From: Pseudobdellovibrio exovorus JSS
Lineage (GTDB): Bacteria; Bdellovibrionota; Bdellovibrionia; Bdellovibrionales; Bdellovibrionaceae
Direction of reading: 5' to 3'
Length of the DNA stretch: 64,000 bases
Assembly: GCF_000348725.1 (NCBI RefSeq)
Contig: NC_020813.1
Location: 2,587,563 to 2,651,562, forward strand
Of this stretch, positions 26,558 through 41,920 are shown in pieces; the first letter of the stretch is position 1, and each line of letters begins with the position of its first letter. The notes under the pieces were generated by a model. It did not search any database and was not told the origin of the DNA. It was given only the letters and a program-made list of their open reading frames with translations. A program made the translations under genes and the position numbers.

Positions 26558-26648
26558 CTGTTTCACCTCGACTAATCAAAAGCCTAACATACATGAAAGT
26601 CGTGTCAATCGCCTTATGAGATTGATTTTTATATAGATATTCAAAGTG

Positions 26649-26741: not shown

Positions 26742-27953
26742 ATGAATATCCAAGGTAAAAAGAAGATAGCTTTAGTATTGAGTGGAGGCGGGATCAAAGC
26801 CGCTGCCTATCATATTGGCGTCTGCATGGCGCTCCAAGAAAAAGGCTTCGTCTTTGCCGGAGGCTCTAAGGAACTTGTTCTTCAACGCTATCCAAATGGT
26901 GATGCTCAGAACTCAAACAAACCCACAATTCGCCTTTATGTGGGCTCCAGTGCAGGAGCTTTTGTTGCTTCTGTTTTGGCCTCTGGAAAATCGTTGGAAT
27001 CTTTAGTGACAGCCTTTCAAGTGGGGTTTGGTAACTCTCCGTTTTACAGTGTTCCCCACGATGAGCGTATTAAACCCATCGGTTATCGCCATCTGTTTAA
27101 TCTCAACTCAAAACGAATCCTCAGTTGGATGCCTGAAAGCTTGATGCAAAAGTCGCTGATTACTGGCGGACTTGAAGTGTTTTTAAAGCGCGGTTTTAAA
27201 TTAAATGGTTTATTCAACACCAACGGAGTTGAACGTTATTTACGCAAATATATTTTGGATGAAAATGAGTTTTCACGCTTAGGTGTCGAGCTTTATGTCA
27301 TTGCCACTCAGTTAAATCACTCACGAAAAAGCATCTTTGGACCCTATTTAGAAAGCTCAAAGAATTCGACGACGAAATATATCGGTTATTCTAAGATTTC
27401 CGAAGCGGTTGCCGCATCAACATCTTTGCCTCCGGTTTATGCACCTTATCCGGTAAAAAAGCCAAACGGCAAGATCATCTATCACTATGATGGCGAAATC
27501 CGCGACACGCTAAGTTCCCATGTGGCTTCCGATCATGGTGCAGATTTAATCATCGCCTCTTATTCCATGCAGCCCTATCATTTTAACTCGGAAGTGGGCT
27601 CGCTTCATACATTTGGTATGCCCGCGATTGTGAATCAGGCTTTGTATCAAGTTCTGGAGCAAAAAGTCGCACGCCATATACAAAATCAAAAAGAGAAAAA
27701 AGACACTTATCTTGCACTGAAAAAAACATGTGCCGAACTTAATCTAAATGCGAGCATGACAGAACAGATTCTCGGTGTCGCACGTGAAAAACTCTCGCAT
27801 CAACCAGATGTTGATTATATATATATTTCTCCCCGTCCGCAAAATTACGAAATGTTTTTTGCAGATCACTTTTCGCTGAACCCACAGATTTTAGAAAAAA
27901 TTCTGCGCGTTGGCTTCAAGTCGGGCTTACACGTTCTTCGCGAATATATATAG
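26742..27953 (+). CDS. Patatin-like phospholipase
   Basis: 403 residues. The oxyanion loop SGGGIKA (14-20), the nucleophile elbow VGSSAGAF with Ser70, and the DGE segment of YHYDGEIRD (the usual D-G-A/G Asp) make a complete Ser-Asp dyad. Such enzymes hydrolyse membrane phospholipids. No Sec signal peptide is seen; members are exported by other routes or act inside the cell. An insertion (about 36-60) separates the first two motifs. Patatins are plausible for prey-membrane attack in a predator, but this is inference. A GNAT gene follows at 37 bp. Confidence 0.88.
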   Translation: MNIQGKKKIALVLSGGGIKAAAYHIGVCMALQEKGFVFAGGSKELVLQRYPNGDAQNSNKPTIRLYVGSSAGAFVASVLASGKSLESLVTAFQVGFGNSPFYSVPHDERIKPIGYRHLFNLNSKRILSWMPESLMQKSLITGGLEVFLKRGFKLNGLFNTNGVERYLRKYILDENEFSRLGVELYVIATQLNHSRKSIFGPYLESSKNSTTKYIGYSKISEAVAASTSLPPVYAPYPVKKPNGKIIYHYDGEIRDTLSSHVASDHGADLIIASYSMQPYHFNSEVGSLHTFGMPAIVNQALYQVLEQKVARHIQNQKEKKDTYLALKKTCAELNLNASMTEQILGVAREKLSHQPDVDYIYISPRPQNYEMFFADHFSLNPQILEKILRVGFKSGLHVLREYI

Positions 27954-27990
27954 ACGACCTTGCCATCGCGGGGTGAAGGATAAAACGGTT

Positions 27991-28491
27991 ATGATTAAAT
28001 ATCGCCCCTCAGACTTTTCCGAAGTAGCTCCTGTCTGGAGGGAAAAGCTCTGGAGTGCAGAATATGATTTTCAATCCACCAGTTGCATGATCTATCCGTC
28101 TGGTTATGACATTGATATTCCTAAAAAATATTCTGCTGTTTTTTTCGTGGCAGAAGATGAAGGCAAAATCGTTGGTGTTTACAGTGGTCATTTGACTTCG
28201 CCAGAGCACTTTCGCGCGCGCGGTCTTTACGTCGATCCCGATTATCGCGGACAGGGAATTTCAAGACAGCTGTTCAATTTAATTTTAGCTGAAGCCAAAA
28301 AGCAAAAGGCCACGCTGTTGTGGACGACTCCGCGCCAAAGCAGTTGGGCGACCTACGCTAGTTTTGGATTTACACAAGATTCAGAATTTACTCACGAGGG
28401 TTTTCGCTATGGTCCCAACTGCTATGCCAGCATGAAGGTTTCCACAGATAATCGCCTCATCAGTTTTTTAAAGAATTATTTTTTGTTGTAA
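27991..28491 (+). CDS. GNAT-family N-acetyltransferase
   Basis: 166 residues from ATG 27991 (GAAGGA upstream). The acetyl-CoA binding motif A is visible in LYVDPDYRGQGISRQLFNLIL (in pieces), preceded by AEDEGKIVGVYSGHL. Substrate unknown. It follows the patatin gene closely and may share its transcript. Its 3' end overlaps the convergent small gene by 16 bp. Confidence 0.85.
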   Translation: MIKYRPSDFSEVAPVWREKLWSAEYDFQSTSCMIYPSGYDIDIPKKYSAVFFVAEDEGKIVGVYSGHLTSPEHFRARGLYVDPDYRGQGISRQLFNLILAEAKKQKATLLWTTPRQSSWATYASFGFTQDSEFTHEGFRYGPNCYASMKVSTDNRLISFLKNYFLL

Positions 28492-28700
28492 CGAATGCTG
28501 CCGGGACCGCGTGGGCGCGAATCATCCATTTTGTCACCGAAACTTAAGAAGACTTTATATTCCTCTTCATCAACCTTAAGGTTTTTAAAAATCTCGTCCC
28601 ACTCTTTTTCGATCATAGATCGCTGAGCCTGTTTGTAAAGATCTGCTTCCGTCTGTTCCGATTTTGGATCGACGTTTTTGTTAACTTGGTTTTTTTTCAT
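28476..28700 (-). CDS. Small hydrophilic protein of unknown function
   Basis: 74 residues from ATG 28700 with GGGTGAAA upstream. Very polar, rich in Lys, Glu and Asp (MKKNQVNKNVDPKSEQTEADLY), ending in a basic tail SRPRGPGSIRYNKK. The start overlaps the end of the preceding exported-protein gene by 20 bp, so translational coupling is likely. I recognise no family. Confidence 0.6.
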   Translation of the reverse strand: MKKNQVNKNVDPKSEQTEADLYKQAQRSMIEKEWDEIFKNLKVDEEEYKVFLSFGDKMDDSRPRGPGSIRYNKK

Positions 28701-29223
28701 TTTCACCCGCACCTGAAAAGTTAATTGCAAATGTCGACATCTCGCTATCTAAGCGGTGGAACATTTGCGTCATGGCCGTACTGCGTGCTTTGAAGACTTT
28801 ACCCATTAAAGAGCCCACTTCAGGACCGTGATCTTTAAGGATTTTTGTTAAAAGCTTTTTTTCTGAATCTGTCAGACTCGCAATTGTGTTTTCTGCAAAC
28901 TCGGTTTCGATAGATTTTAAAATTTCTTGTGCGGCAGGAACATATTTAGCTTGAAGTGCCTGCAAGCAAACTTCTGGTTGAGTTGATTTTTGTGCGTGGT
29001 GAGCCATTCCCTCTGTTAGCTGATGGCCGAAGTCTTTACGGAACGCGCGAAAAAGCTCTGCGTGTTCACCAAAACGCTCAATATCGGCTTTCGAAAGATC
29101 AAAAGCTGTTTCAAGGTCAAATGCTTTCGCAGAAGATGAAAAACTCAATCCCGCGACGCCGGCGAAAATACTGAAGACATTTCGTACTGCTGATCTGCGA
29201 TTTTGCGGTTTTGACCACTGCAT
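28681..29223 (-). CDS. Exported protein of unknown function
   Basis: 180 residues. The N-terminus WSKPQNRRSAVRNVFSIFAGVAGLSFSSSAKAF (in pieces) is a signal peptide with cleavage likely after AKA. The Arg pair is not a full twin-arginine motif, so Sec export is as likely as Tat. The mature part is helical with one Cys, and ends in a polar tail. It forms a two-gene unit with the small gene downstream. No family recognised. Confidence 0.65.
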   Translation of the reverse strand: MQWSKPQNRRSAVRNVFSIFAGVAGLSFSSSAKAFDLETAFDLSKADIERFGEHAELFRAFRKDFGHQLTEGMAHHAQKSTQPEVCLQALQAKYVPAAQEILKSIETEFAENTIASLTDSEKKLLTKILKDHGPEVGSLMGKVFKARSTAMTQMFHRLDSEMSTFAINFSGAGENEKKPS

Positions 29224-29316
29224 ACAACCCCCTTTAGGCCACTCACGATTTTTTGTATCTTTCTGTATATTTTAGAAGAACCCTACACATTTCGCAAAGA
29301 GTTTTATTGGGGTAAG

Positions 29317-30216
29317 TTGGGGAAGATCACTGTGTCTCAGAATGGTCAGTTTACACAAACTGGGGGGTCTGTTACCCTAAATTACGTGTCACACTCTTCC
29401 GCGTCTTTTTCTGCCTCTGGACTAAACAAACAAGGTTTCTCCTCTGTCTTCCGTGGAGTTGCGGGACAAATTTGGGAAACGCCATTTCTTTCGGCCGACG
29501 AGCTTTCTGCTGTTAAAAAGTATCTTTCTCAAAACGTCTCTGTAGAAAAGTCAGACGTGTACACCATCGGCCAGCCCCTTTATAAAAATTCTGCTGATGA
29601 AAATGCACTGCAATTTTATTTACAAGAAGCACAGATGTTTCGACAAACTCATTTTGCCGCACTGGATTGGCTATATTCCAGAGTACAAAATTCACTGCAG
29701 CAATTTTTATCGTACTCAAATGTCCATTACCATTCAAAGTTAGCTCCGCCTGGCTTTTTGCTTTATAAAAGCAATGCTCCCTTATCAAAACCTCACTTTG
29801 ATTTTCAGGCACGGCGGGTTCCAAAGTCATGGCGTGAAGGTTCCGATCTAAATCGCATTATCACATTTACTTTGGCTATTGATGTTCCTTCTGCTGGCAG
29901 TGGTCTTTACTACTGGTCCACTCCTTTTAAAGATTTAATTTCTTCTTTAGAAAAAACTGAGCCCAGTACAGACCTCGACGGCGCGCGCGAATGGGGTTTT
30001 GATTCAAAGAAGATGTCGGACTTACAGTTCTATAATTTTTTAAAAACACAAGAGCGCCACTTTTTACCCTATCAATCCGGACACCTTTATCTGACGATTG
30101 GCGGTCTTTTACATCAAGCGGGTCCTACCAATATCTTGCGGGATGGCGAAACACGAATCACCTTGCAAGGACATGGGCTTTACCATGAAGTTAATGGCTG
30201 GGAGCTCTACTGGTGA
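29317..30216 (+). CDS. Putative 2-oxoglutarate/Fe(II)-dependent oxygenase
   Basis: 299 residues from TTG 29317; a GTG at 29332 with GGGGAAG 6 nt upstream is an equally good start. The double-stranded beta-helix iron triad is readable: His160 and Asp162 (PHFDFQ), His266 (LLHQAGPT), with Arg280 (ETRITLQGHG) placed to bind 2-oxoglutarate. Enzymes of this kind hydroxylate peptides, amino acids or lipids. The N-terminal 45 residues are Ser/Gln/Gly-rich and not part of the fold. The stop overlaps the next start (GTGA), so the two are translationally coupled. It is the first gene of the island. Confidence 0.7.
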   Translation: MGKITVSQNGQFTQTGGSVTLNYVSHSSASFSASGLNKQGFSSVFRGVAGQIWETPFLSADELSAVKKYLSQNVSVEKSDVYTIGQPLYKNSADENALQFYLQEAQMFRQTHFAALDWLYSRVQNSLQQFLSYSNVHYHSKLAPPGFLLYKSNAPLSKPHFDFQARRVPKSWREGSDLNRIITFTLAIDVPSAGSGLYYWSTPFKDLISSLEKTEPSTDLDGAREWGFDSKKMSDLQFYNFLKTQERHFLPYQSGHLYLTIGGLLHQAGPTNILRDGETRITLQGHGLYHEVNGWELYW

Positions 30217-31169
30217 AAACAGATTCTATTTCGTTTCAAAAAATTTTTGATCTTCATACTCAGTTTGCAAATGAAGAAATGGCTCTGTCTAAGTCTTTAC
30301 TAGATGGAGCATTTTTACACCTGTCACCAATTGCCCGCAGAGTGCGCCGTGAATTTTTAGATTCTACGTTTTCTTTAGTTGAGTTACGAGATGGCCTTGA
30401 AAAAGATATTTTGTATCAAAGCCACTTGTTTGTATTGCCGTTGCAATATGAACAGCGTGAGCTTTTTTATAAAAACAATGTCGATAGTTTTTCTTTTTTA
30501 TGTGAAAAATTCCCGACATTAAAAGATCTCGATGTGCGCCTTGTTCTTCCTTTACAGTCTGGTCAGACAGAAAACAAATTGCTTCACGAGTCGATTCACT
30601 TGCTGACTTTTGATCAAATTTTTAAAAAAGAGACCTACTTTTATAATTCAGACTTTTCTTTAAAAGAAAAACACGACTGGCTTTTACGTCACTTAGCGAC
30701 CGAAGGAACTGTGTTGGCTTTAGAGCTGATGTCGACCATCGTTCCGCCAACCTATGAAAACACCTACATCACCCATTTTTCTTGTCATCAGGTGGCCCAA
30801 CATCCGAGTGATTATCAAGTTCTTCTTGAAGCAGCAAGTGCCTTCGGTATGACTCGTCTTTATCGACTTTTAGCGCGGGGTTTTCTAAGCGCAAATCTTC
30901 TTCCAGGAAAGAACCTCCTTGAACAAGGTGAAGTGAATTTGATTTGCGAAGATTTAGCCGACTCTCCGCTGGCATGGAGAGTTTGTAAGCGCAGTCAGGA
31001 TTTAGGAAATGGCTTCCGCATTGGCTCAAATACGCGTTACTTTACCTCGTTAGGTTTAGCCGAAAACTATGAAAAGACTATTTCCAGTTGGCAGCTAGAA
31101 AACCATTTGTCTAATCCTATAGTCGACCAGATCATCACTTTAAACGAACGCTTTTTGAAAGATTCCTAA
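30213..31169 (+). CDS. Unknown protein with HExxH-like motif, island member
   Basis: 318 residues, soluble, GTG start overlapping the stop of the oxygenase gene. LLHESIHLL contains His125-Glu126-x-x-His129, and 31 residues later RHLATEG (His160, Glu164). The same arrangement (HDYIH, then HLLTE) is found in the 405-residue protein of this island, so they seem to be distant paralogues. HExxH can be a zinc-protease motif, but the paralogue has Asp in the Glu place, so a metal-binding non-peptidase is also possible. Its 3' end overlaps the convergent SGNH gene by 35 bp. Confidence 0.6.
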   Translation: MKTDSISFQKIFDLHTQFANEEMALSKSLLDGAFLHLSPIARRVRREFLDSTFSLVELRDGLEKDILYQSHLFVLPLQYEQRELFYKNNVDSFSFLCEKFPTLKDLDVRLVLPLQSGQTENKLLHESIHLLTFDQIFKKETYFYNSDFSLKEKHDWLLRHLATEGTVLALELMSTIVPPTYENTYITHFSCHQVAQHPSDYQVLLEAASAFGMTRLYRLLARGFLSANLLPGKNLLEQGEVNLICEDLADSPLAWRVCKRSQDLGNGFRIGSNTRYFTSLGLAENYEKTISSWQLENHLSNPIVDQIITLNERFLKDS

Positions 31170-32265
31170 GCGGCTTTTCTAATTGTGTTCCCATATAGTG
31201 AGCAAAATCTTCTGAGCCTTTTCCGTTGAAGTGCACATGATCATAAAAAATCTCTGTTCTTCCCGAAAGATCTTTGTCCGCATCAACCAGAATCAATTGT
31301 CGTGACTTAGCGACCTGTCGGATTTCATTTTGAATTAATTGCGAGGCTTTTAATATTCCGTCAAAATTCAGCTCGACAAAACGATAGTTCACTTTTTTTC
31401 TATCTTCGTCTTTTAGATGTTTTACGGGCAACATCGCCTGCGTTGCTAAAATGGGCGTTACCCCTGCGCTTTTAGCTATCTGGACAAAAGCTTCATAGTT
31501 GATTTTAATTTGATTTTTGAAATCTTCTTTTATTTCTGCGCCGTACATTTCGTCGTTGCCATAGTTCGCACGGCGATTTTCTATGGCGTTTTTGTTGTCT
31601 TCTGAAAAATAAATATCGAGGAACTTATAGCGTGCCAGTAAGTATAAATAAGAGTGCTCTGAAAGAAACTCGTCCACTTTGTTTGCGGGATAAATGTAGA
31701 CATTTCTTTGTTCCTGAAAAGAGGGAATAAACGGAAGTTGTGGCGCGCTTTTATTGAAAAACCGAATGTCATTCCACGCTTCATAAAGCAGAACCGCATC
31801 TGGCTTTAAAAACTCTACCTCTGAAAGGAATCTGGCGGTGATTTCTGCACTTGAGGCCCCAGGGATTCCTGCATTGATCACTTCGATAGGAAGACCTTTT
31901 GCTTCTAACTCTTTTTGCAGTTGCTCGGGCCAGCTGACCGCGACTAAGGGATCAAAAACGGTGGACCCGCCGTAGATCACCAGACGAAATTTCTTTTTGG
32001 GTTCCTCAATTTCAGCCCCGCGATAGCCATAGCTATTGATTTGAACCCATAACCCTTCATCTTTATGTATCAGTCGTTTTTCACGCTTGATTCGCTGTCT
32101 TGAAAAGGCGCTAGGCTCGTACTCTAACGATTCGGCTTTGATTTGTGCGGGTGTGAGGAGTGGCTCCTCGGTCAACGCTAAAACGACAGGATCTAGCACC
32201 GCCAGAAACAGCAAGAAAACAAGCGTCGTCGTTACTAGTATTTTACACTTCTGACTTATCAACAT
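31135..32265 (-). CDS. SGNH/GDSL-family hydrolase, membrane-anchored
   Basis: 376 residues. An N-terminal transmembrane or uncleaved signal segment (ILVTTTLVFLLFLAVLDPVV) places the catalytic domain outside the cytoplasm. SGNH blocks: Ser101 in IYGGSTVFD, Gly in INAGIPGASS, Asn in YEAWNDIRF, and the Asp-His pair in YDHVHFNGKG near the C-terminus. Family members are esterases or O-acetyl-handling enzymes on sugars and lipids. The 5' end overlaps the 3' end of the upstream subtilase gene by 23 bp, suggesting an operon of two. Confidence 0.82.
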   Translation of the reverse strand: MLISQKCKILVTTTLVFLLFLAVLDPVVLALTEEPLLTPAQIKAESLEYEPSAFSRQRIKREKRLIHKDEGLWVQINSYGYRGAEIEEPKKKFRLVIYGGSTVFDPLVAVSWPEQLQKELEAKGLPIEVINAGIPGASSAEITARFLSEVEFLKPDAVLLYEAWNDIRFFNKSAPQLPFIPSFQEQRNVYIYPANKVDEFLSEHSYLYLLARYKFLDIYFSEDNKNAIENRRANYGNDEMYGAEIKEDFKNQIKINYEAFVQIAKSAGVTPILATQAMLPVKHLKDEDRKKVNYRFVELNFDGILKASQLIQNEIRQVAKSRQLILVDADKDLSGRTEIFYDHVHFNGKGSEDFAHYMGTQLEKPLRNLSKSVRLK

Positions 32266-33310
32266 AAATCTCCACAGAGTTTATCATGTTTTGATCAAGA
32301 GTCGCCTCTTCATAAAAAAGTAAGCGATTGGGGGCCAATACCTCTTGAGGAAATAACAAAATGTCTTTTGTCGATTCTGCAATCAACATTTTCTTCAGCT
32401 CGCTATGTGTTTGACTATGCGTCTGACTGTGCGTTTGTTGGTTTGCGCTGCCCTTTTGAATTTTGTTGGCGCACGCGGACGCCACAATCATGGCTGCGGT
32501 GCTGGTTCCACTGCAGAGGTTGTAGTCCTTTTCTGTATTCCATGCCGCGTGAATGTATTTCGCTGGCGCTAATAGAGTCAGACCTTCCCCATAATTGCTT
32601 CTCAGTTTTTCTTCCCACAGAAATGAATCCGAAAAAGAGGTGCCGCCCACGGTGATCACGTCTGAATTGCGTGTCGGCGAAAACTCGCTAATAGGGCGAC
32701 CTTGGTTTCCAGCAGCCCAAATAACCGGAGCGCCATAACCCAAAAGCTCTTCTATCTTTTTATCTACAAAGGTTGAAGCCTCGGCCAGAAATGTACCGAC
32801 AAAGACGACACGTCCTTGATATTTTTTAACAAGATCCGGTAGGAATTCAAAAGCGTGCTGTAGATTTTTCTCAAATTGATTTTTATTCGAAGAAATGACC
32901 GGAGCAGAAAACAGCTCTGCCGAGCAAAAGCCGGTGGTTTTTCCCACCGCAATCGAAGCCATCGCCGTTGCATGATCCACAGTGGCCATGCGCTCTTCTG
33001 TTTCAGGATTGAAAAGCAATTGTGTGCAGCCTTGTAATTCAGAATGCTGAGTTTCTACCACACCATCAAACAACACGATCGCTGTCGGTGGTTTTGCAAC
33101 AGCTGCCATAGTTGCCGACGTCTGAGGTTTGCTTGTGGATTCTGTTATTTTTCTATCAACAAAATTGTGAGGAAATTTTTCTCGGGATGAGACACGAAAT
33201 CGGGCCCAATTTTTTCTCCATGCTGGCCACGCAGAGGAGTCAGGATACAAAGAGCTCTCTTGTCTTGCGGGGGGCGTCAGCTCTAAAAAACTGGTATCGT
33301 TCTTTGTCAT
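32243..33310 (-). CDS. Subtilisin-like protease without signal peptide
   Basis: 355 residues. The S8 triad is Asp82 (IVLFDGVVE), His113 (TVDHATAMASI) and Ser270 (LCSGTSTAAM), with Asn202 (AAGNQG) as oxyanion residue. No signal peptide or membrane segment is visible, so it is predicted cytoplasmic, unlike the lipoprotein subtilase at 2.2 kb. A tandem QTHSQTHSQTHS lies near the C-terminus (DNA about 32400-32440), a short in-frame repeat. Cytoplasmic S8 enzymes occur in peptide-maturation clusters, where they trim leader peptides; that is a hypothesis here, as no precursor was found. Only 30 bp separate its start from the divergent 405-residue gene. Confidence 0.8.
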   Translation of the reverse strand: MTKNDTSFLELTPPARQESSLYPDSSAWPAWRKNWARFRVSSREKFPHNFVDRKITESTSKPQTSATMAAVAKPPTAIVLFDGVVETQHSELQGCTQLLFNPETEERMATVDHATAMASIAVGKTTGFCSAELFSAPVISSNKNQFEKNLQHAFEFLPDLVKKYQGRVVFVGTFLAEASTFVDKKIEELLGYGAPVIWAAGNQGRPISEFSPTRNSDVITVGGTSFSDSFLWEEKLRSNYGEGLTLLAPAKYIHAAWNTEKDYNLCSGTSTAAMIVASACANKIQKGSANQQTHSQTHSQTHSELKKMLIAESTKDILLFPQEVLAPNRLLFYEEATLDQNMINSVEIYVDKSEV

Positions 33311-33340
33311 GGCTATATACTACGTAAAGCAGGTAATTTT

Positions 33341-34558
33341 ATGCAAACGAAATTGATCAATCAAGACATCAGCTTAGAAAGTCCGATGCGTATTCCTTTG
33401 ATACGCAAAGCTTTAACTGATCCTTTGATTCAATTAAGTCCGCGCGCGATCGATCATCGCTGGCAAAGCGAGGCTAGCTTGCCTGCAGCTACGGGATTTA
33501 ATCCCTACAGCATGAAGATCTACTTGCCCTTCAACAGCGTTGTTTTTGATTGGCTAAAAAATCCAGCGCAATCGGCTCGCCCTTTTAACGAAGACGATGC
33601 TCTGATTAAAAAACTTTTGCTGGTGGTGCATGACTACATTCACTGCTGGTCTATTCTGGCGGTACGCCAACTGCGTCCAGACCTCAACTTTGGCTGCGCA
33701 GAAATCACCTCTGAAAATTTTGAAGACATGGTGTTCTGCCATTTGTTAACAGAGGCCGCCGCCGTTGCCGGAGCCGACTACTGGTATTGGAGTCAAAACA
33801 AAATTAACGATCTTTGCCCGATTGGCACCAGAACAAATTCTTTTGCTGTTTCTTATCAATCCAGTGAACTTGGCGAGTTCCGCAAATTTAATCCTGACTT
33901 CAATCCCTTTCATAAAGACTTCCTGTCTTATTTGACGAGCAACTACTGCCGTGGTGATTTTGCAGGCTTTGATTTACTTAAGATCAAAGAAAGCCCCATG
34001 GTCTCCCATACGATTTTTCACGAAGTCAGCTATTCTCATTCCCAACGACTTTATTCACGTCGGATTATTTCTTCTTTTTCTAAGATGCCGGATAACTTTC
34101 ATCTGTCCGAAATGGCTGAATCTTTAAAAGCACCCGTTTCTTTTCGTGAAGACTGGAAAAAAGATCTGACCTTGCGCCTAGCTAATTTATTGTGGAATTA
34201 TATTTTGGATTTAGAGCCACAATTAGATTTTCAGTTAGACTCTCATACTGATCCACTTCAAGAAGAAACGCGCTGGCAAAGCCATAAAAATCACTACATG
34301 TACACCAATGTCAACTCCCTCACGGAAGAACAGCTTCAAGCCGAACTGAGCCACATGGAATGGAACGAAGACAAGTATTGGTTTTGGACACAGTATATTT
34401 CGACGTTTGAGTTTTCACAGTTTACCAAACTAGAACTAGATAAAATTCGCCTTGGTCTTTTAATTAAAAGCCAAGAGCGCCTTTTAGAAGTTGTGGATGG
34501 AAAAACGCGTTTAGCTTTGAATACCTACGAACCACAAACACTTTTTATTCCAAACTAA
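33341..34558 (+). CDS. Unknown protein with HDxxH...HLxTE motif, island member
   Basis: 405 residues, soluble. LLLVVHDYIHCW (His97-Asp98-x-x-His101) and CHLLTEAAAV (His134, Glu138) reproduce the motif pair of the 318-residue island protein with a 32-residue spacing. A pattern of His/Asp/Glu on predicted helices would suit a metal centre. AGGTAA precedes ATG 33341. A -10-like TATACT (33315-33320) lies in the 30-bp divergent gap. It is followed after 12 bp by the NIS-synthetase-like gene. Function unknown. Confidence 0.6.
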   Translation: MQTKLINQDISLESPMRIPLIRKALTDPLIQLSPRAIDHRWQSEASLPAATGFNPYSMKIYLPFNSVVFDWLKNPAQSARPFNEDDALIKKLLLVVHDYIHCWSILAVRQLRPDLNFGCAEITSENFEDMVFCHLLTEAAAVAGADYWYWSQNKINDLCPIGTRTNSFAVSYQSSELGEFRKFNPDFNPFHKDFLSYLTSNYCRGDFAGFDLLKIKESPMVSHTIFHEVSYSHSQRLYSRRIISSFSKMPDNFHLSEMAESLKAPVSFREDWKKDLTLRLANLLWNYILDLEPQLDFQLDSHTDPLQEETRWQSHKNHYMYTNVNSLTEEQLQAELSHMEWNEDKYWFWTQYISTFEFSQFTKLELDKIRLGLLIKSQERLLEVVDGKTRLALNTYEPQTLFIPN

Positions 34559-34570
34559 GGACGTTGACAC

Positions 34571-36283
34571 ATGAAGAACGTCCGCCAACAGGCTGAACTC
34601 AAAAAACAAATCGCGAAGACCTTTGTGATGGCTCAGCAAGAGCTCAATTCAATGTCTTCGCGCTCTGTGGCCTTAAATGATTTTCAAAATGATGTGACGG
34701 GTGCCCGTGTACAGAAAAACTCTTTTGTTGAAAATGGATTCCTGCCTTTAAAGAAAACCTTAGCCGCCCAAAAAGGGCTGCACGGAAAGACTCCCTATTG
34801 GCAACTGACTCCGCAAAGATTAAAACATCCAGCGGTATCAAGTGTTGTCGACAATCCCTTTCCCTATTTGAGCGCCCATCTTTGGGATCGCAGCGCTTTA
34901 CGTTTGCTAGAAAAAACCTTCGGGCCCGCGGATGGGTTTTTAACACAAGAAGTCCTTGTGAACCTTCGGACCATCTGTGCTTTTGCTGAAGATGCACCGA
35001 GAGGCTCCAACAAAGGAGTTTTCTGTGACCCGACCTTACTGAAGTTTTCCCATTATCAAAAAGATGAAGCGCGCGATTTGAGTCCCGCCGTTAGAAAAGG
35101 AATTTTTTTAGCGAATATCGAAATGTCGCATCTGTTAAAAGATAATCCTGTTTTTTTAAACGAACATAGCGGCACCACTTTTGATTTGCCAGACGAGAAT
35201 ACTTTTTTCTATCAGCTGCAACGTCAACTTCCCTTTGAACAAATGCAGTTAGACGGACAAGATCTGTATTTGCCGATCTTTGCTATCTACTCGCAGCAAC
35301 TGCGCCAGACGGCTTTAGAAAAGTTGATCTTTGGTGCTACTGTTTCTAGCGCTCAGTCTTCGACTGATTATCTAGCTTGGTTCAAACAGAATGTGGCGCG
35401 GCCGTTAATGCGTGTGATTTTTGATTCCTTTTTTAAATACGGAATTCACTTTGAATTACATCAGCAAAACCTCACTGTGCTTTTGCGGCAAGCGCAAACG
35501 GAATCGTTATTTGTTCAAGACTTCTATGATGTCTTGGAAGATCCGGTCGCACAGGCGTTGTTAAAACCCTTTGATGCAGAAGCGATCGTCACCCGCCAGC
35601 GTGCTCCGCTAGGGCTCTGTAATGAAATGGGTTTTGCTAGCGACGAACAGGGGCCAAAAAGTCTTTTAGCCATTGGTAGCTGGTATCGTCTTTTCTTGCG
35701 CGACTTCGGACAACATGAAAAGTGCGTTCGCGATGGCTTTTTATCTTTCTGCAAGGGCAACTCTCAGGACGGCGATTCAATTCCCACTCTGAGCTTTAAT
35801 GATATTTTTTCTGAGGGCATTGCAGAGGAACTTAAAAAATTCACTCAACAACATCAGATCGATTTTGATCTGTCTACCTTCCGTGAGCATGATATTGTTA
35901 TCGATTCTACCGCGGATTTTTATGCGCGCCTAACCGCTTTGCGAGAATTGATTTGTTTTTCTTTACTTAAGAAGCTGTCTCTGTCTGAAGCCACTAGCTC
36001 TTTAGCCGGAGCCTCAGGGGAAAATGCTTTGGATCGCTTTTATCAAACATTACGGGATGGCCATGGCATACTTCTGAGCTATGGCAGCGTCGTTCCCGAA
36101 AATCAAGACGAGCTACGCCTTGGATGGAATAGCTGGCTTTTATCGCCGCATCCTCGCCTGCAAGTTTTATTTCAAACGGACAAAGATAACCCGCGAAAAG
36201 CCCGCTATTTTGCAGCTCTTTTTCCGCGTCAACCTTCGGCTTTTTATTTAGAGTATTTTAAGGCTGTAAACTCAATTTCTTAA
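34571..36283 (+). CDS. Large unknown protein, distantly like NIS (IucA/IucC) synthetases
   Basis: 570 residues, soluble. The segment FFKYGIHFELHQQNLTVLLRQ (in pieces, about 287-306) followed by LFVQDFYDV closely resembles the central block of IucA/IucC-type siderophore synthetases (yG...E.H.QN...l, then RDF.G). The N-terminal ATP-binding signature of that family was not recognised, so the similarity covers only part of the protein. If real, it would form an amide or ester from a carboxylate. AAGGA precedes the ATG. It overlaps the convergent 120-residue gene by 26 bp. Confidence 0.5.
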   Translation: MKNVRQQAELKKQIAKTFVMAQQELNSMSSRSVALNDFQNDVTGARVQKNSFVENGFLPLKKTLAAQKGLHGKTPYWQLTPQRLKHPAVSSVVDNPFPYLSAHLWDRSALRLLEKTFGPADGFLTQEVLVNLRTICAFAEDAPRGSNKGVFCDPTLLKFSHYQKDEARDLSPAVRKGIFLANIEMSHLLKDNPVFLNEHSGTTFDLPDENTFFYQLQRQLPFEQMQLDGQDLYLPIFAIYSQQLRQTALEKLIFGATVSSAQSSTDYLAWFKQNVARPLMRVIFDSFFKYGIHFELHQQNLTVLLRQAQTESLFVQDFYDVLEDPVAQALLKPFDAEAIVTRQRAPLGLCNEMGFASDEQGPKSLLAIGSWYRLFLRDFGQHEKCVRDGFLSFCKGNSQDGDSIPTLSFNDIFSEGIAEELKKFTQQHQIDFDLSTFREHDIVIDSTADFYARLTALRELICFSLLKKLSLSEATSSLAGASGENALDRFYQTLRDGHGILLSYGSVVPENQDELRLGWNSWLLSPHPRLQVLFQTDKDNPRKARYFAALFPRQPSAFYLEYFKAVNSIS

Positions 36284-36620
36284 GATAGGCTTCCGCCTTA
36301 TCGAAAGAGTCCACCAAAACTGTATCTTGATACTTAAAGTTTTCAAAAAGTGCTGTTGAGGTTCCTTCGCAAATCACCACAGCAAATTCGTCCTTCCATA
36401 TTTTTTGAGCCTCTGACCACTCAGCACCATCTGCTTTTTTAAAAAGTCGTTCGCAAACAAGCTGTTCATAGGGTCCAAGAACCACTTCGCTTAAACGGCT
36501 ATCTGAGGTGCGATATAACGACAGTTTGTCTTGCTTCCATGTGGACCAAAACTCTGTCAGTTGCTTTTCCGCAATGGCACTTGAGGGTTTAGATAGAACG
36601 AGAACACGCAGTTGCCGCAT
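36258..36620 (-). CDS. Small protein of unknown function, island member
   Basis: 120 residues, begins MRQLRVLVLSKPSSAIAEKQL and contains FAVVICEGTSTALFENF, so an alternating beta-alpha fold is likely. No signal peptide. The start is 3 bp after the stop of the PP-loop gene, so it is in the same transcript. I recognise no family. Confidence 0.6.
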   Translation of the reverse strand: MRQLRVLVLSKPSSAIAEKQLTEFWSTWKQDKLSLYRTSDSRLSEVVLGPYEQLVCERLFKKADGAEWSEAQKIWKDEFAVVICEGTSTALFENFKYQDTVLVDSFDKAEAYLKKLSLQP

Positions 36621-36623
36621 GGA

Positions 36624-37580
36624 TTAACTTTCTGCCTCTGAATGATAGAAAAAATTTTCTTCCGCTGTTTTTGGTAATAGTGTTCTAACAGATGTTTTTA
36701 ATGGAAAGATTCGTTGTAGTGGCTCGCGGAATAGTTTTTCGTAAGCATCACCAATTCCATATCTGTTGGCATAGTACTCTTTTACTTTTTCAAAGCCTGT
36801 GTACTTTTGAGATCGTCCTGTTACGATTTTCGTGTCGAAGCCGCCTTGGTCAAAGGCATATTCTTTCATGTCATAGTGAGTAGCGAGTTTTAATTCCATA
36901 CGCTTCTTTTTCGAAGAGCCAGCAATGGTATGAGTTAAAAAAGAGAAGTAGAGTTCGGGTGTATATTGAAAAAAATGGCCGACTCCACTTTTTCCTGTCT
37001 GTTGGAAAAAGCGATCCACGCCGTATTCTTTGTCTTCTGATGTATATAAATAGCTTTCCTCTAACTCGTTGCCCTCGCGGTCGAAGTAGTTGATATAGGG
37101 AAAGCTTCCTGCAAAGACAGGAAGACCTTGAATCTGCTGTGCCAGCCAAAGATGCGTTGCAAATTGTGGCGAATTTGTTCGGTATTTTAATGCGTATTCA
37201 AGGTATTCACCGGACTCATAAAAACGGACAATACTTAAATCGATAAAGATTGGTTTTTTACCAATCTTTTCACAGAACTCCAAAGCATAGATTGTATCAT
37301 GATCATTAAACTCAGGTTGAAGTCGCATGATCACCAGCTCAAAAGGGACTTTGGCGGCCAACGCTGCCTGCGCTACGCATTCGCTATCAATTCCGCCGCT
37401 AAAGCAAATCATCAACGGAGTCTTATATTTTTCGTATATCAACTGGCACGCGCGCTGCGCTTCCACAAATGGCAACTGCGGACGCGAATTAAAGAGTTTA
37501 AAGTGTGTGAGCTGATGACCTTCTTTAGGTTCTGAAATCGAGTAATGCGAAAGATGAGATGCGGGATAGAATAGTGTCAT
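36624..37580 (-). CDS. PP-loop (asparagine-synthetase-like) ATPase
   Basis: 318 residues. The PP-loop SGGIDS (61-66, in MICFSGGIDSECVA) identifies the AANH superfamily, which adenylates a carboxyl or carbonyl oxygen before amide formation, thiolation or ligation. The glutaminase domain of true AsnB is absent. The remainder does not match NadE, GuaA or TilS that I can tell. It stands 6 bp after the HTTM gene and 3 bp before the 120-residue gene in a three-gene minus-strand unit. Confidence 0.7.
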   Translation of the reverse strand: MTLFYPASHLSHYSISEPKEGHQLTHFKLFNSRPQLPFVEAQRACQLIYEKYKTPLMICFSGGIDSECVAQAALAAKVPFELVIMRLQPEFNDHDTIYALEFCEKIGKKPIFIDLSIVRFYESGEYLEYALKYRTNSPQFATHLWLAQQIQGLPVFAGSFPYINYFDREGNELEESYLYTSEDKEYGVDRFFQQTGKSGVGHFFQYTPELYFSFLTHTIAGSSKKKRMELKLATHYDMKEYAFDQGGFDTKIVTGRSQKYTGFEKVKEYYANRYGIGDAYEKLFREPLQRIFPLKTSVRTLLPKTAEENFFYHSEAES

Positions 37581-37586
37581 CGTGAT

Positions 37587-39029
37587 TTAATTGTAACGGC
37601 CCATATGTCGTGCGATCAAGTCGTGACAGATATATTCTTGTTCGTCGGCGTAGGTAATGGTTGGCTTTAGTGGTGGTTCATCTGAAAACTTTCGGATGTA
37701 TCGCTTAACCACGATGCTGTAAATTTCAACTTTTCTTTTTTCACTATGATCCAGACAAAGTGCGGCCACCCATCTTTCTTTTTCATAGGTGTTGTGTATG
37801 GCCCGTTTCATCACGTGAAAGCGGCCCGCAATTAAGGAATCGGCTCGATCCACCCGTGGCAACAGAAATAGTTCGGTGTCGTCCTTGTGCTCTTTTACAT
37901 AAAAGAAGTAGTTGTTGTGCTGTGGGGAAAAATCTGAAAAGACAAACCAAAACTGATACAAAAAAGTCCGACTGAGGATTTCAAAATATTTTTGCATCTT
38001 TGGGTTTTCATCATGGTAAAGCGAAAGATAGTTACTAGACACGATCACAAGACAAGCCAAGATAGCTAAAGTGGCTTTCACCTTTCCGTAGGTTTTTTTG
38101 ACAGCAGAGGCTTTTGGGTTTTTTGACGGATCTTCCACTGTCTTTTCCTCTTCGGAAAAGCTGGCGTAGCGCCAACGACCAAGGGCATTCCAAAACTCTT
38201 TTGGAATCAACACCATCAGTGGCACCATTAAAAACCAGTACATCGTGGCATCTGAAACTAATAAATAACCAATGAAATGAAAAAAGGCCCAAAAAGCAAA
38301 AATTCCTCCATGAATCCACGCTTTTTTCCACGGAGCCAATAGCAACAGACTCAATAAAATCTGTAACAGAGGAAGTGCATAACTGATTCCTTGCAAGAGC
38401 CACGGAAACTGCGCCACAAACCCATAGCTTTCAAACACACCTTCAGACTGAATATTTCTAACAAAAAATAATCCCTGCTGCCAACTGTCGTGCGCTAACT
38501 TCGTGAAACCGGCAAAAAAGTAAAGACTGAAAAGCTGTACGAAATACGGCAAAGTCACAGGCCATGACCATGACGACTTCACCACTTCGGTTTGCTTTAA
38601 AAAGCTTCCTGTAGAAGAAAACTTTAATGGTAGGAATAGAATCCAATAACAAAAAAACGTAAAAACTAAATCACCGATGTGTGCGGCTAGATCATTCCTT
38701 CGCATCGTTAGGCGTAAAATAATCAACCAAACAACCAGCCAAACTTTCGGGCGCCAACCGATTATAAGAAAAATTCCCGCAATCGCCTGAAGGCCGATTA
38801 ACATCTGCCATTGCTGTAAACTCAAATTAGCAATCAGTTGATGAATCCACAATGAGCGACTGAAGAACTCGGCTGAAAAATCACGATAGCCATCTGTGCT
38901 GTACAGCCAACGAATATGGGGAAACTTAATTAGGGCGTCGTAAAGTGCTAGCAGTCCCGCGGCAATACGAAAAGCCACCAAAGAGCGTAGATCTATATCA
39001 AATAGAGAATTTAAAGTTCGCTTTATCAC
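37587..39029 (-). CDS. HTTM-domain membrane protein (vitamin K-dependent carboxylase-like)
   Basis: 480 residues with about eight hydrophobic segments. The N-terminus FDIDLRSLVAFRIAAGLLALYDALI and GYRDFSAEFF, then LIIGWRPKVWLVVWLIIL and YFFAGFTKL, follow the HTTM pattern found in bacterial relatives of gamma-glutamyl carboxylase. The bacterial members mostly lack a known substrate. A cytoplasmic or periplasmic C-terminal domain of about 140 residues (FYVKEHKDDTELFLLPRVD) follows. GTG start at 39029. It is the first gene of the three-gene unit. Confidence 0.75.
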   Translation of the reverse strand: MIKRTLNSLFDIDLRSLVAFRIAAGLLALYDALIKFPHIRWLYSTDGYRDFSAEFFSRSLWIHQLIANLSLQQWQMLIGLQAIAGIFLIIGWRPKVWLVVWLIILRLTMRRNDLAAHIGDLVFTFFCYWILFLPLKFSSTGSFLKQTEVVKSSWSWPVTLPYFVQLFSLYFFAGFTKLAHDSWQQGLFFVRNIQSEGVFESYGFVAQFPWLLQGISYALPLLQILLSLLLLAPWKKAWIHGGIFAFWAFFHFIGYLLVSDATMYWFLMVPLMVLIPKEFWNALGRWRYASFSEEEKTVEDPSKNPKASAVKKTYGKVKATLAILACLVIVSSNYLSLYHDENPKMQKYFEILSRTFLYQFWFVFSDFSPQHNNYFFYVKEHKDDTELFLLPRVDRADSLIAGRFHVMKRAIHNTYEKERWVAALCLDHSEKRKVEIYSIVVKRYIRKFSDEPPLKPTITYADEQEYICHDLIARHMGRYN

Positions 39030-39083
39030 GGGTTTCTTTAATATCTTGGCTGACTCAGTAAAAAAAGACTAGAGTTATATAGA

Positions 39084-40406
39084 GTGAACCCGACTTATAT
39101 TCTAGATTTCAAATCCGCTGTTCTCAAGTTGGCTCAAATTAAGATTCGTAGTCAAAGGCCTCGCTATGAGCGCGTTGCTTTTTTTCCCCGCCACGAAATG
39201 CGCGGCAGTTTGTTTGTCGCTATCACTCACTACGATTGGTCCGGATACGATTATCTAAAGACAGCGCTTGAAGCTGGTGTGGCCGGAGTCGTTCTAGAAA
39301 CCTCCCACGAACACTTAGCGGCCTTAATTCCCAACAATGTCGACGTCTATCTTGTCGAAAGTCACCGCGCCTTTTTAGCCTCTATGGCCCATGAATCCCG
39401 TCAAGAGTTTGATGGAGACGTCATTGCCATCACGGGAAGCACCGGAAAAAGCCAACTCGGCACGTGGCTGCAATACGCTTTAGATTTTCATTTTAAAACT
39501 CAGTTTAACGATGGCAATCGCAATAGTTTTTTCGGACTGTGTGAGTTGCTTCTGCATATTCGTCGAAGCACACAAAAGCTTGTCGTCGAATTAGGTGCCC
39601 GTCAACTCGGAGAGCTTTCTGCCTTAGGTGAAATTCTTCAGCCACAAAACGTCGTGCTGACCAACATTCAGCACTCGCATTTAAAATATCTTAAGAATTT
39701 ACAGAATGTCTTCGCCCTAAAAACAGAGCTGTTACAGGTTTCTTCTGTAGAAACTGTTTTTTTAAATGCTCTTGATCCCCTACAAAGTCCACTTCCCGAT
39801 CAGTTTCCAGATAAGACTTTTATATTTTATCATCCTGAAAAAGTTTCGTCTGAGTTAGGCTTGTCTGGCCCCCATGAAGCGCAAGCTTATGCCGCTGTCG
39901 ATGCAATAACAGACTTTCTTGGTGCGACCCCGATGCCAGAGTTTTCATTTTGGCCAAAGCTTCCTTTTAGCTTGTCGCAAATGCACACACGAAATGGCCA
40001 ACTGGCTTTGTTGGATGGGCGCGTGACAACACCGGAAAGTTTAGAAAACTTCCGTAAGATTTTTTCTACCTTGTTAGCTCAGCAGAAACCGCCAACATCT
40101 TTTGCTTTGATCTCTGGCTTTGTCGATTTCGATCCTGTACACGAGCTGGCCTTTATCAAGACTGCAGCCCAGCGGTGGGCTGAATTACCTTTGAAGAAAA
40201 TTTACTATGTTGGGCCACATGGTGAGTCTTTAAAAAAATTATATCTAGAAAATGGTGGACACGCCGAAGTGACTTTAGGAAAAAAAGAAGATGTGCAAAA
40301 AATTCTTGAGGAAATTCAGAGTCTAAGCCCCGAAGCTTTACTGGCGATTCAAGGACATCAAGAAGAGTGGTTTTTTAAATTGATGACAGAGCTAACGAAA
40401 AGTTAG
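39084..40406 (+). CDS. MurF-like ATP-dependent amide ligase
   Basis: 440 residues from GTG 39084. An N-terminal MurF-type domain (GSLFVAITHYDWSGYDYLKTALEAGVAGVVLE in pieces) precedes the P-loop ITGSTGKS, the NDGNRNSFFG segment (GNxNNxxG in MurF) and the TNIQHSHLKYLKNLQN / ALKTELL central region. Mur ligases join an amino acid or peptide to a carboxylate through an acyl phosphate. The genuine MurF normally sits in the mur/fts cluster, so this is probably a paralogue used by the island pathway. Its last codons form a strong hairpin. It converges with nuoN 23 bp away. Confidence 0.72.
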   Translation: MNPTYILDFKSAVLKLAQIKIRSQRPRYERVAFFPRHEMRGSLFVAITHYDWSGYDYLKTALEAGVAGVVLETSHEHLAALIPNNVDVYLVESHRAFLASMAHESRQEFDGDVIAITGSTGKSQLGTWLQYALDFHFKTQFNDGNRNSFFGLCELLLHIRRSTQKLVVELGARQLGELSALGEILQPQNVVLTNIQHSHLKYLKNLQNVFALKTELLQVSSVETVFLNALDPLQSPLPDQFPDKTFIFYHPEKVSSELGLSGPHEAQAYAAVDAITDFLGATPMPEFSFWPKLPFSLSQMHTRNGQLALLDGRVTTPESLENFRKIFSTLLAQQKPPTSFALISGFVDFDPVHELAFIKTAAQRWAELPLKKIYYVGPHGESLKKLYLENGGHAEVTLGKKEDVQKILEEIQSLSPEALLAIQGHQEEWFFKLMTELTKS

Positions 40407-40412
40407 CTCTGT
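40386..40412. terminator. Hairpin shared by the ends of the Mur-ligase-like and nuoN genes
   Basis: ACAGAGCTAAC (40386-40396), loop GAAAA and GTTAGCTCTGT (40402-40412) form a perfect 11-bp stem that includes the stop codon of the ligase gene. T-runs are short on both sides. A bidirectional terminator between convergent operons is the likely role. Confidence 0.6.
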
Positions 40413-40429
40413 TGTTAGAAAAATTCAGA

Positions 40430-41920
40430 TTAGCCTAAGCTTTTTTCGATCATGCTGAAGATCGGACCCGAGATCAAACCTAAAGCTAAAATCAACAATG
40501 CTGAAATCACCACAACAACTGTTGTTCCGTAGTGACCTTCTTCTTTTGTCGTACAATTTCCTTCTTTCATGTACATGACCACGATTGGACGTAAATAGTA
40601 GTACGCACCTAGAACCGAGTTCACAACACCCCAGAAAGCTAACCACAGAAGTCCTTCGTTAACCGCCGCACTGAATAAGTACAGCTTACCGAAGAAACCT
40701 AAAGCTGGTGGAATACCCGCTAAAGACAACAAGAAGATCGTAAAGCATAAAGCTAAAACTGGTTTTTGCTTTGCGAATCCAGCAAGGTCTTCTGTTTGAA
40801 CAAAGTGATTTTCATCTTTTTCAATCATGCTTAACACCGCAAACGCACCCATTGTCATAAGAGCGTACGTCATAATGTAAAACACGACGCTAGAAGCACC
40901 ATAAGCTGAGTTTTCACTGATACCCGCGGTGATCACACCCACCAAAACATAACCCGAGTGAGCTACTGACGAATACGCCAGTGTACGCTTCAAGTTGTTT
41001 TGAATTAATGCAGCCACGTTACCTGCTGTCATCGTGATAACGGCAAACCATTGCAAGATCATCAGTAAGTTCTCGGAACCCACTAGGCCTTTAGAGGCCA
41101 CAATTCTTAAGAACGCTGCAAATGAAGCGGCCTTAATCGCTGTCGCCATAAAAGAAGTGATCGGAGTCGGTGATCCCTGATAAACATCCGGTGTCCATGC
41201 ATGGAAGGGAGCAATCGAAACTTTAAAGCAGAAGCCCAGAACGATGAACGCAAAACCAAAAATAAATAGGTAGTTACTGCTTTTCAAAAGCATGTCAGCG
41301 TTTTGAATTAAAGCCAATGTGCTGACTGTTCCTGTTGTTCCGTAGATAAACGAAACGCCATACAAGAAAATCGCAGAAGCAAATGATCCCAATACGAAGT
41401 ATTTGATCGCCGCTTCTTTTGAAATGCGCTGTTCATGTGACATCGCGATCATTAAGTAAAGTGATAATGACATCAACTCTAATCCAATGAAAACCGTGAT
41501 CAGGTTCACCGCTGAAATCAAGATCAGCGCACCTAATAGCGAGTTCATTGCTAAAAACAACAATTCTGAAAACTGTTTACCACGAGTCGATGGGTTTTCG
41601 TACATCATCACCATTGCGCCACCCGCGATCACAACAGCCACAACACCTAACCACTGTGTTAATCCGTCAAAGATCAACTGGCCATTAAATGCCGTTGGGG
41701 CGCCCGAAGCTCCTTCGCCGCCGAAGACCATTAAAAGTCCCGCCGTCAAAGTTAAACCGATAAGAGCCTCAATGATTGTGGCTACAGGGTTTTGTTCGCG
41801 ATTGCCGCGCAACACTTTGATGGCGATTGGCAACAAGCTGAACAAAAACAACACGATCATCGGAGAGATCAGTAATACATCAGAAAGACCGACGGTTACG
41901 ATATTATTAATAGAAGACAT
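40430..41920 (-). CDS. nuoN: NADH-quinone oxidoreductase subunit N
   Basis: 496 residues, about 14 transmembrane segments, antiporter-like proton channel of complex I. The family core is visible: LISAVNLITVFIGLELMSLSLYLM, KEAAIKYFVLGSFASAI, FKVSIAPFHAWTPDVYQGSPTPITSFMATAIKAASF (in pieces) with the functional Lys and Glu residues. It is the last gene of the nuo operon, 3 bp after nuoM. Confidence 0.97.
   Translation of the reverse strand: MSSINNIVTVGLSDVLLISPMIVLFLFSLLPIAIKVLRGNREQNPVATIIEALIGLTLTAGLLMVFGGEGASGAPTAFNGQLIFDGLTQWLGVVAVVIAGGAMVMMYENPSTRGKQFSELLFLAMNSLLGALILISAVNLITVFIGLELMSLSLYLMIAMSHEQRISKEAAIKYFVLGSFASAIFLYGVSFIYGTTGTVSTLALIQNADMLLKSSNYLFIFGFAFIVLGFCFKVSIAPFHAWTPDVYQGSPTPITSFMATAIKAASFAAFLRIVASKGLVGSENLLMILQWFAVITMTAGNVAALIQNNLKRTLAYSSVAHSGYVLVGVITAGISENSAYGASSVVFYIMTYALMTMGAFAVLSMIEKDENHFVQTEDLAGFAKQKPVLALCFTIFLLSLAGIPPALGFFGKLYLFSAAVNEGLLWLAFWGVVNSVLGAYYYLRPIVVMYMKEGNCTTKEEGHYGTTVVVVISALLILALGLISGPIFSMIEKSLG

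What the first reader, a model, noticed from the sequence alone, without database searches (positions are those of the whole stretch)
29317..40406. Uncharacterised enzyme island resembling a biosynthetic or peptide-modification cluster
Ten genes in 11 kb encode a 2OG-Fe(II) oxygenase, two unknown proteins with a shared HxxxH...HLxTE motif, a membrane SGNH hydrolase, a cytoplasmic S8 protease, a protein partly like NIS synthetases, a small unknown protein, a PP-loop ATPase, an HTTM membrane protein and a MurF-like ligase. Two or three different ATP-dependent carboxylate-activating types beside an oxygenase, protease and hydrolase are a combination I do not recognise from any named pathway. No obvious precursor peptide, carrier protein or transporter was found.
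Basis: inference. Interest (0 to 1): 0.75.

Follow-up and report, generated by a model that had tools for sequence, protein, structure and literature searches.

The report
Predator's inserted peptide-modification gene island
A 12.5-kb block of 13 genes, inserted into the chromosome of a predatory bacterium between two otherwise neighbouring conserved genes, most likely makes and chemically modifies a small ribosome-made peptide, using an ATP enzyme whose close relatives sit in recognisable peptide-antibiotic-type clusters of related predators.

Summary
The ten genes are present as described. The unit is larger. In ten relatives lon, a MerR-like gene, a patatin gene and nuoN follow one another. 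In this genome (2,657,893 bp, the size of Pseudobdellovibrio exovorus JSS) about 12.5 kb lies between patatin and nuoN (27,954-40,429). The PP-loop protein has six full-length paralogues, all near dnaA. In the tree it falls (100/100) in a Bdellovibrionota-only clade with all four loci carrying YcaO or SagB-like enzymes; two of these have Ser/Cys/Gly-rich precursor-like ORFs. Its sister locus encodes Tat-Cys peptide, PP-loop, small protein and NIS-like protein in one operon. A divergent cousin (L172) holds NIS-like, PP-loop, 2OG, degenerate S8-Hint and HExxH genes together. Unknown 1 carries HExxH...E; unknown 2 HDYxH. I judge it a RiPP-like (ribosomal peptide-modifying) island with an unusual enzyme set: about 0.5. 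Precursor, chemistry and product are untested.

The parts
27954..40429 (.). Inserted island, between patatin gene (ends 27953) and nuoN (40430-41920, - strand)
   Evidence: lon / MerR-like / patatin / nuoN order is shared by ten relatives; the island is absent from all
27988..28491 (+). GNAT acetyltransferase; family recurs beside PP-loop genes in Bdellovibrionota and phages
   Evidence: PF13508 2e-15; homologues L061_12, L065_8, L066_12, L079_14, L181_15 and 12 viral PP-loop loci, 37-39% identity
28476..28700 (-). 74-aa candidate precursor peptide, ATG at 28700, C-terminus DDSRPRGPGSIRYNKK
   Evidence: overlaps the upstream stop codon (coupled); block DEEEYKVFLSFG resembles DEERFKVMLASG of the precursor-like ORF L071_6 (0 of 300 shuffles as good, post hoc); no homologue by sequence search
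28681..29223 (-). Exported 180-aa protein with Tat-like N-terminus (NRRSAVRNVFSIFAG...AKA)
   Evidence: sequence; weak similarity to exported L049_9 near a PP-loop pair; an exported-protein gene followed by a short peptide gene recurs in L071, L078, L065, L052, L055
29317..30216 (+). 2OG-Fe(II) oxygenase-like protein (HFD...H...R)
   Evidence: phrog_24927 4e-10; no homologue in 60 relatives
30213..31169 (+). HExxH...E protein (unknown 1), putative metalloprotease/metalloenzyme
   Evidence: H125-E126-S127-x-H129 and E164 invariant in 4 homologues; neighbours of PP-loops in L172 and L070/L173
31135..32265 (-). SGNH/GDSL hydrolase with N-terminal membrane anchor
   Evidence: PF13472 1e-9
32243..33310 (-). 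Cytoplasmic S8 subtilase with D, H and S motifs
   Evidence: PF00082 3e-6; profile search joins it to the S8-Hint protein L077_6 near a clade A PP-loop
33341..34558 (+). HDYxH...TE protein (unknown 2)
   Evidence: one homologue, 32% identity, 3e-62, adjacent to a 2OG-like gene (L175_8/9)
34571..36283 (+). NIS-synthetase/kinase-fold ATP enzyme (HxxxHQQN...D)
   Evidence: PF06276; profile hits SbnC 4e-5; fold search ranks NIS synthetases first although the model is poor; 6 homologues
36258..36620 (-). Small partner protein of the NIS-like enzyme
   Evidence: a 131-134 aa protein precedes the NIS-like gene in L050, L054-L057; sequence similarity shown only to the L050 copy
36624..37580 (-). PP-loop ATPase (SGGxDSE) of the Bdellovibrionota clade A
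   Evidence: 6 full-length paralogues in the genome; 18 invariant residues; tree
37587..39029 (-). HTTM-like membrane protein with C-terminal soluble domain
   Evidence: weak similarity to L066_10 (PF05090 HTTM) and L065_6 of PP-loop loci, about 5 sd above shuffles
39084..40406 (+). MurF-like amide ligase, divergent C-terminus; the genome has other MurF-like hits
   Evidence: TIGR01143 6e-39, below cut-off; inside the insertion; hits in relatives are MurF-type at about 22-31%

Best explanation
The island is a RiPP-like peptide-modification cluster. A short peptide (best candidate 28,476-28,700) is translated together with an exported partner protein. ATP-dependent enzymes with PP-loop and NIS/kinase folds (the latter with a small partner) activate groups on the peptide or a co-substrate; a MurF-like ligase, a GNAT and a 2OG oxygenase join, acylate or hydroxylate it. 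A cytoplasmic subtilase and/or the HExxH protein trims the leader, and the membrane HTTM and SGNH proteins act at or outside the inner membrane. Shown: one insertion; PP-loop clade linked to YcaO/SagB loci and Tat-Cys peptides; recurrence of NIS-like, PP-loop, S8-like, HExxH and 2OG genes in one divergent locus; candidate ORF overlapping the gene of an exported protein. Inferred: that this ORF is the substrate, every catalytic step, the order of steps and the product.
For: Insertion as a unit between patatin and nuoN. PP-loop in a 100/100 clade of 23 Bdellovibrionota rows holding all four YcaO/SagB-linked and all six Tat-Cys-linked members, apart from the viral/desaturase clade. YcaO PF02624 in L065, L071, L078 (6e-40 to 2e-54), TfuA in L078, SagB-like nitroreductase in L065 and L080. 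Precursor-like ORFs L071_6 (core SKVGPILTGSCCVGSILSSSGSAATGGSCT) and L065_17 (Gly/Ser/Cys-rich, then Hint). Sister locus L050: Tat-Cys peptide - PP-loop - small - NIS-like operon. Tat-Cys tails fused to three PP-loop proteins. L172: NIS-like, PP-loop, 2OG, S8-Hint, HExxH in 8.5 kb. Twin-arginine proteins enriched within 1.5 kb of PP-loops (odds 4.4, p 0.005).
Against: No YcaO, SagB, lanthionine or radical SAM enzyme, recognised RRE or exporter in the island. The candidate peptide has no Cys, no homologue at useful E-value, and its leader similarity to L071_6 was found after the fact; a leader motif common to five peptides was not clearly better than shuffles. The PP-loop superfamily also occurs in phage gene sets with desaturases and 2OG enzymes, so it is not RiPP-specific. 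Four genes have no clear specific relatives near other PP-loops. L172's S8-like protein lacks recognisable His/Ser motifs, so proteolysis is not a shared function there.
Confidence: 0.5

Rival explanations
1. A small-molecule (non-ribosomal) pathway: the NIS-like, PP-loop and MurF-like ligases build an amide-linked metabolite or siderophore-like compound from free amino acids, and the proteases are unrelated passengers.
For: Three carboxylate/amide-activating folds and a 2OG enzyme; NIS fold; PP-loop relatives in phages lie with desaturases, 2OG and radical SAM genes.
Against: PF04183 (NIS N-terminal domain) not found; no siderophore receptor or exporter in the island; the window PP-loop is in the YcaO/Tat-Cys clade, not the phage/desaturase clade; S8-like and HExxH genes recur with it.
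Confidence: 0.22
2. A post-translational modification system for the exported 180-aa protein (or a surface polymer) rather than for a diffusible peptide; the product stays in the predator's envelope.
For: Exported DUF2059-like proteins recur beside PP-loop and NIS-like genes in about nine loci; HTTM and SGNH membrane proteins; Tat-like signal on the exported protein.
Against: The window protein was not recovered by the profile of those exported proteins when left out; YcaO loci encode short Cys/Ser-rich peptides, the usual RiPP layout.
Confidence: 0.15
3. A composite insertion: a PP-loop/NIS-like/GNAT core with unrelated passengers (SGNH, MurF-like, HTTM), so the ten genes do not form one pathway.
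For: Four genes lack clear specific relatives near other PP-loops; gene orientations alternate.
Against: One block absent from all relatives, genes overlapping or separated by few bases; NIS-like, PP-loop, S8-like, HExxH and a 2OG gene reassemble in L172.
Confidence: 0.13

Closest known systems
Linear azol(in)e-containing / YcaO-type RiPP clusters (TOMMs), incl. YcaO-TfuA
   Same: PP-loop relatives of the same clade lie in such clusters in related bacteria, next to short leader/core ORFs
   Different: The window island has no YcaO, TfuA or SagB-like gene; its candidate peptide has no Cys
NRPS-independent siderophore (NIS) synthetases (AcsD, DesD, IucA/C, SbnC)
   Same: C-terminal ATP-binding part and HxQN...D motif; best folds in the PDB
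   Different: No PF04183 match; about 200 residues of different C-terminus; partner protein; no siderophore genes
Lasso-peptide macrocyclases (asparagine-synthetase-like PP-loop enzymes)
   Same: A PP-loop ATPase in a peptide-type cluster with a protease
   Different: PF00733 match is insignificant (E 0.26); no B1/B2 proteins recognised
Phage gene sets with PP-loop, desaturase, 2OG, B12-radical SAM, GNAT
   Same: Same PP-loop superfamily and same GNAT family
   Different: Separate 100/100 clade of the PP-loop; no desaturase or radical SAM gene in the island

Membership tests
RiPP cluster (any class) | Short ORF with leader/core layout adjacent to modifying enzymes | tested here: inconclusive
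   74-aa ORF at 28476-28700 overlapping the gene of an exported protein within the same insertion; leader similarity to L071_6 post hoc
RiPP cluster (any class) | A modifying-enzyme family shared with recognised RiPP clusters | tested here: met
   PP-loop in one clade with all four YcaO/SagB-linked members
RiPP cluster (any class) | The encoded peptide is actually modified | not testable with these tools
   needs expression and mass spectrometry
YcaO-type RiPP (TOMM / thioamide) | YcaO protein in the cluster | tested here: not met
   no PF02624 match among the scanned island proteins
NIS siderophore synthetase | PF06276-type C-terminal ATP-binding domain | tested here: met
   29.1 bits against cut-off 25.2; SbnC 4e-5 by profile
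NIS siderophore synthetase | PF04183 IucA/IucC domain and siderophore pathway genes | tested here: not met
   no PF04183 match at E 1; FslA/SbnC NCBIfam models far below cut-off
Lasso peptide cluster | Asparagine-synthetase-like macrocyclase (PF00733) | tested here: not met
   E 0.26, 11.3 bits against 21
MurF | Full-length MurF scoring above the model cut-off | tested here: not met
   134.2 bits against 288.6
Genomic island | Insertion absent at the orthologous junction of relatives | tested here: met
   ten relatives
Genomic island | Integrase, tRNA or flanking direct repeats | tested here: not met
   no tRNA, no flanking repeat pair, no integrase-like ORF seen among the island genes

The most novel reading that the evidence does not exclude
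A new RiPP class of predatory Bdellovibrionota, in which a dedicated PP-loop ATPase together with a NIS/kinase-fold enzyme and its small partner is the primary peptide-modifying machinery, acting on Tat-exported or Tat-partnered short peptides, with the PP-loop diversified into seven copies around the replication origin of one predator.
Probability: 0.33. Interest if true: 0.82.

Novelty: new variant of a known kind. Interest (0 to 1): 0.6.

Why it matters
Small-molecule weapons or signals of obligate predatory bacteria are almost unknown; earlier work only tallied RiPP-type clusters in Bdellovibrionota by antiSMASH (PMC8067016). A PP-loop enzyme clade that marks RiPP loci across the group, including loci with no YcaO, would give a search handle for peptide clusters that standard tools may miss, and new ATP-dependent peptide chemistry to test in a cultivated predator with a complete genome.

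Tried and rejected
Scan of genome contigs with the NIS-like protein alone found nothing; viral scan with the 2OG protein found nothing. Siderophore pathway: rejected for lack of PF04183 and accessory genes. Defence system: PADLOC hits marginal only (IetS 1.7e-5 to the S8 region, DndC 0.01). Structure of the HExxH protein: pLDDT 60, all-helical, no PDB match above Z 5, so zincin membership is undecided. NIS-like model has pLDDT 44, so its fold ranking is only supportive. Shared leader motif across five candidate peptides: 8 of 300 shuffles as good, and the best block was the Lys/Asn-rich N-terminus, so not claimed (a first version of the script timed out). Best small-ORF match to the peptide by raw score was L058_14, not a precursor-like ORF. 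Membership of the 180-aa exported protein in the DUF2059-like set: not supported by leave-one-out. Genus-level orthologues of the S8 and HTTM proteins: none at threshold. Literature: no paper in the library holds PP-loop, YcaO and precursor peptide together; Bdellovibrio with YcaO gave one general survey.

Full report
WHAT IS THERE. All ten genes of the finding exist at the stated coordinates and are closely packed. Profile searches support SGNH hydrolase, S8 subtilase, a NIS/FhuF-type C-terminal domain, a Mur-ligase central domain and, weakly, a PP-loop of the NAD-synthetase/LarE type; the 2OG-like protein, the two HxxxH proteins and the small protein have no Pfam family. The genome is one 2,657,893-bp contig that begins with dnaA; the size matches Pseudobdellovibrio exovorus JSS, 2.658 Mb in PMC11656739. 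The name is therefore inferred from size.

IT IS ONE INSERTION, LARGER THAN STATED. lon and nuoN are close together throughout the order. In ten relatives the order is lon, a MerR-like gene (window 26,003-26,566), a patatin gene (26,742-27,953), nuoN, with at most a few unrelated genes between; in the nearest relative (nuoN 81% identical) one unrelated 279-aa gene lies between patatin and nuoN. Here 12.5 kb lie between patatin and nuoN. The insertion therefore also contains a GNAT (27,988-28,491), a short ORF (28,476-28,700, minus) and a 180-aa exported protein with a twin-arginine-like N-terminus (28,681-29,223, minus). The short ORF starts inside the last codons of the exported-protein gene, which suggests translational coupling. 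No tRNA, integrase or flanking repeat was found.

THE PP-LOOP PROTEIN IS THE KEY. It has six other full-length copies in this genome, and all seven lie within 136 kb left or 109 kb right of dnaA. A tree of 58 homologues splits with 100/100 support into a Bdellovibrionota-only clade (23 rows) and a clade of viral proteins and Bdellovibrionota proteins, several of them from desaturase/2OG/radical-SAM gene sets. The window protein is in the first clade, sister (99/93) to the copy at 94 kb. The same clade holds every PP-loop found next to YcaO or a SagB-like nitroreductase: L065 (YcaO + SagB-like), L071 (YcaO), L078 (YcaO + TfuA + ThiF), L080 (SagB-like). L071 encodes a precursor-like ORF ending SKVGPILTGSCCVGSILSSSGSAATGGSCT, and L065 one with a Gly/Ser/Cys-rich stretch before a Hint domain. 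Other members are next to, or fused at their C-terminus with, Tat-like signals followed by short Cys-rich tails (L049, L050, L051, L061, L064). Proteins with twin-arginine signals are enriched within 1.5 kb of PP-loop genes (odds 4.4, Fisher p 0.005).

THE OTHER ENZYMES. The NIS-like protein and a 131-134-aa protein form a gene pair in five further loci. In the sister locus of this genome the operon is Tat-Cys peptide, PP-loop, small protein, NIS-like. Seven NIS-like sequences keep H-x3-HQQN and the following Asp. The profile finds the staphyloferrin synthetase SbnC (4e-5), and a poor model (pLDDT 44) still ranks NIS synthetases first in the PDB, but the N-terminal NIS domain was not detected. 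Unknown 1 carries HES-x-H and a later Glu, invariant in four homologues; in two of the three other genomes it lies beside a PP-loop (L172, L070/L173). It is a candidate metalloprotease; the model gave no fold. Unknown 2 has HDYxH and one known homologue, beside a 2OG-like gene. The window S8 protein keeps D, H and S motifs by eye; its relative L077_6 carries a Hint domain, and the S8-like L172_8 looks catalytically degenerate.

A DIVERGENT COUSIN. L172 (same genus, a 64% complete genome) holds within 8.5 kb a NIS-like protein, exported DUF2059-like proteins, a PP-loop protein, a 2OG-type protein, an S8-Hint protein and the HExxH protein. This is the best evidence that these genes work together. 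SGNH, HTTM, MurF-like and this particular 2OG protein have no clear specific relative near other PP-loops, although HTTM-type proteins with a C-terminal soluble part occur at L065 and L066.

MECHANISM. Best reading: a RiPP-like pathway, with the 74-aa ORF as the most likely substrate, ATP-dependent activation by PP-loop and NIS-like enzymes, ligation/acylation/hydroxylation by MurF-like, GNAT and 2OG proteins, trimming by S8 and/or HExxH proteins, and membrane steps by HTTM and SGNH. Only the gene-level links are shown; substrate, chemistry and product are inferred. The leader block DEEEYKVFLSFG resembles DEERFKVMLASG of L071_6 (0 of 300 shuffles as good), but this pair was chosen after inspection, ranked second of 125 small ORFs by raw score, and no motif common to five candidates was clearly better than shuffles. 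Neither the ORF nor the exported protein has a convincing homologue in the genomes searched.

RIVALS AND NOVELTY. A small-molecule ligase pathway (0.22), modification of the exported protein or envelope (0.15) and a composite of unrelated genes (0.13) remain. It cannot be filed as a YcaO RiPP, lasso peptide or NIS siderophore cluster, because a defining feature of each was tested and not met. It works, most likely, like a RiPP cluster with an enzyme set I could not match to a described class; the literature library gave no paper joining PP-loop, YcaO and precursor peptide, but most subscription papers are not in that library. Hence 'new variant of a known kind', with about a one-in-three chance of being a new class.

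Noticed in passing
G000:C1 2,522,343 to 109,120 (across the origin; window copy 36624-37580): All seven full-length PP-loop paralogues of the genome lie within about 245 kb around dnaA, 9% of the chromosome.
   Followed up: partly
L049:8127-10582: Two tandem PP-loop proteins end in a Tat-like segment followed by a short Cys-rich tail (also L064_13 in another genome): enzyme and precursor-like tail in one chain.
   Followed up: partly
L057:2725-5973: Two proteins with an N-terminal degenerate PP-loop-like domain fused to a C-terminal 2OG-oxygenase-like domain, beside NIS-like and small genes.
   Followed up: no
L065:12304-12993; L077:3350-5194; L172:5804-7549: Hint-type (self-processing) domains in PP-loop loci, once after a Gly/Ser/Cys-rich stretch, twice at the end of S8-like proteins (the L172 one read by eye).
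   Followed up: partly
viral loci L086-L165: PP-loop homologues in 80 phage-type contigs recur with stearoyl-CoA-desaturase-like (38 loci), B12-radical SAM (27), 2OG, GNAT and Rieske-like genes: an uncharacterised phage gene set.
   Followed up: partly
L176:12776-13015: Acyl-carrier-protein-like ORF between desaturase-like genes in a clade B PP-loop locus.
   Followed up: no
L197 (G004, lon-nuoN junction): The lon-patatin-nuoN neighbourhood is variable in relatives: here it holds what looks like an imelysin/iron-permease gene set between lon and the MerR-like gene, so it may be an insertion hotspot.
   Followed up: no
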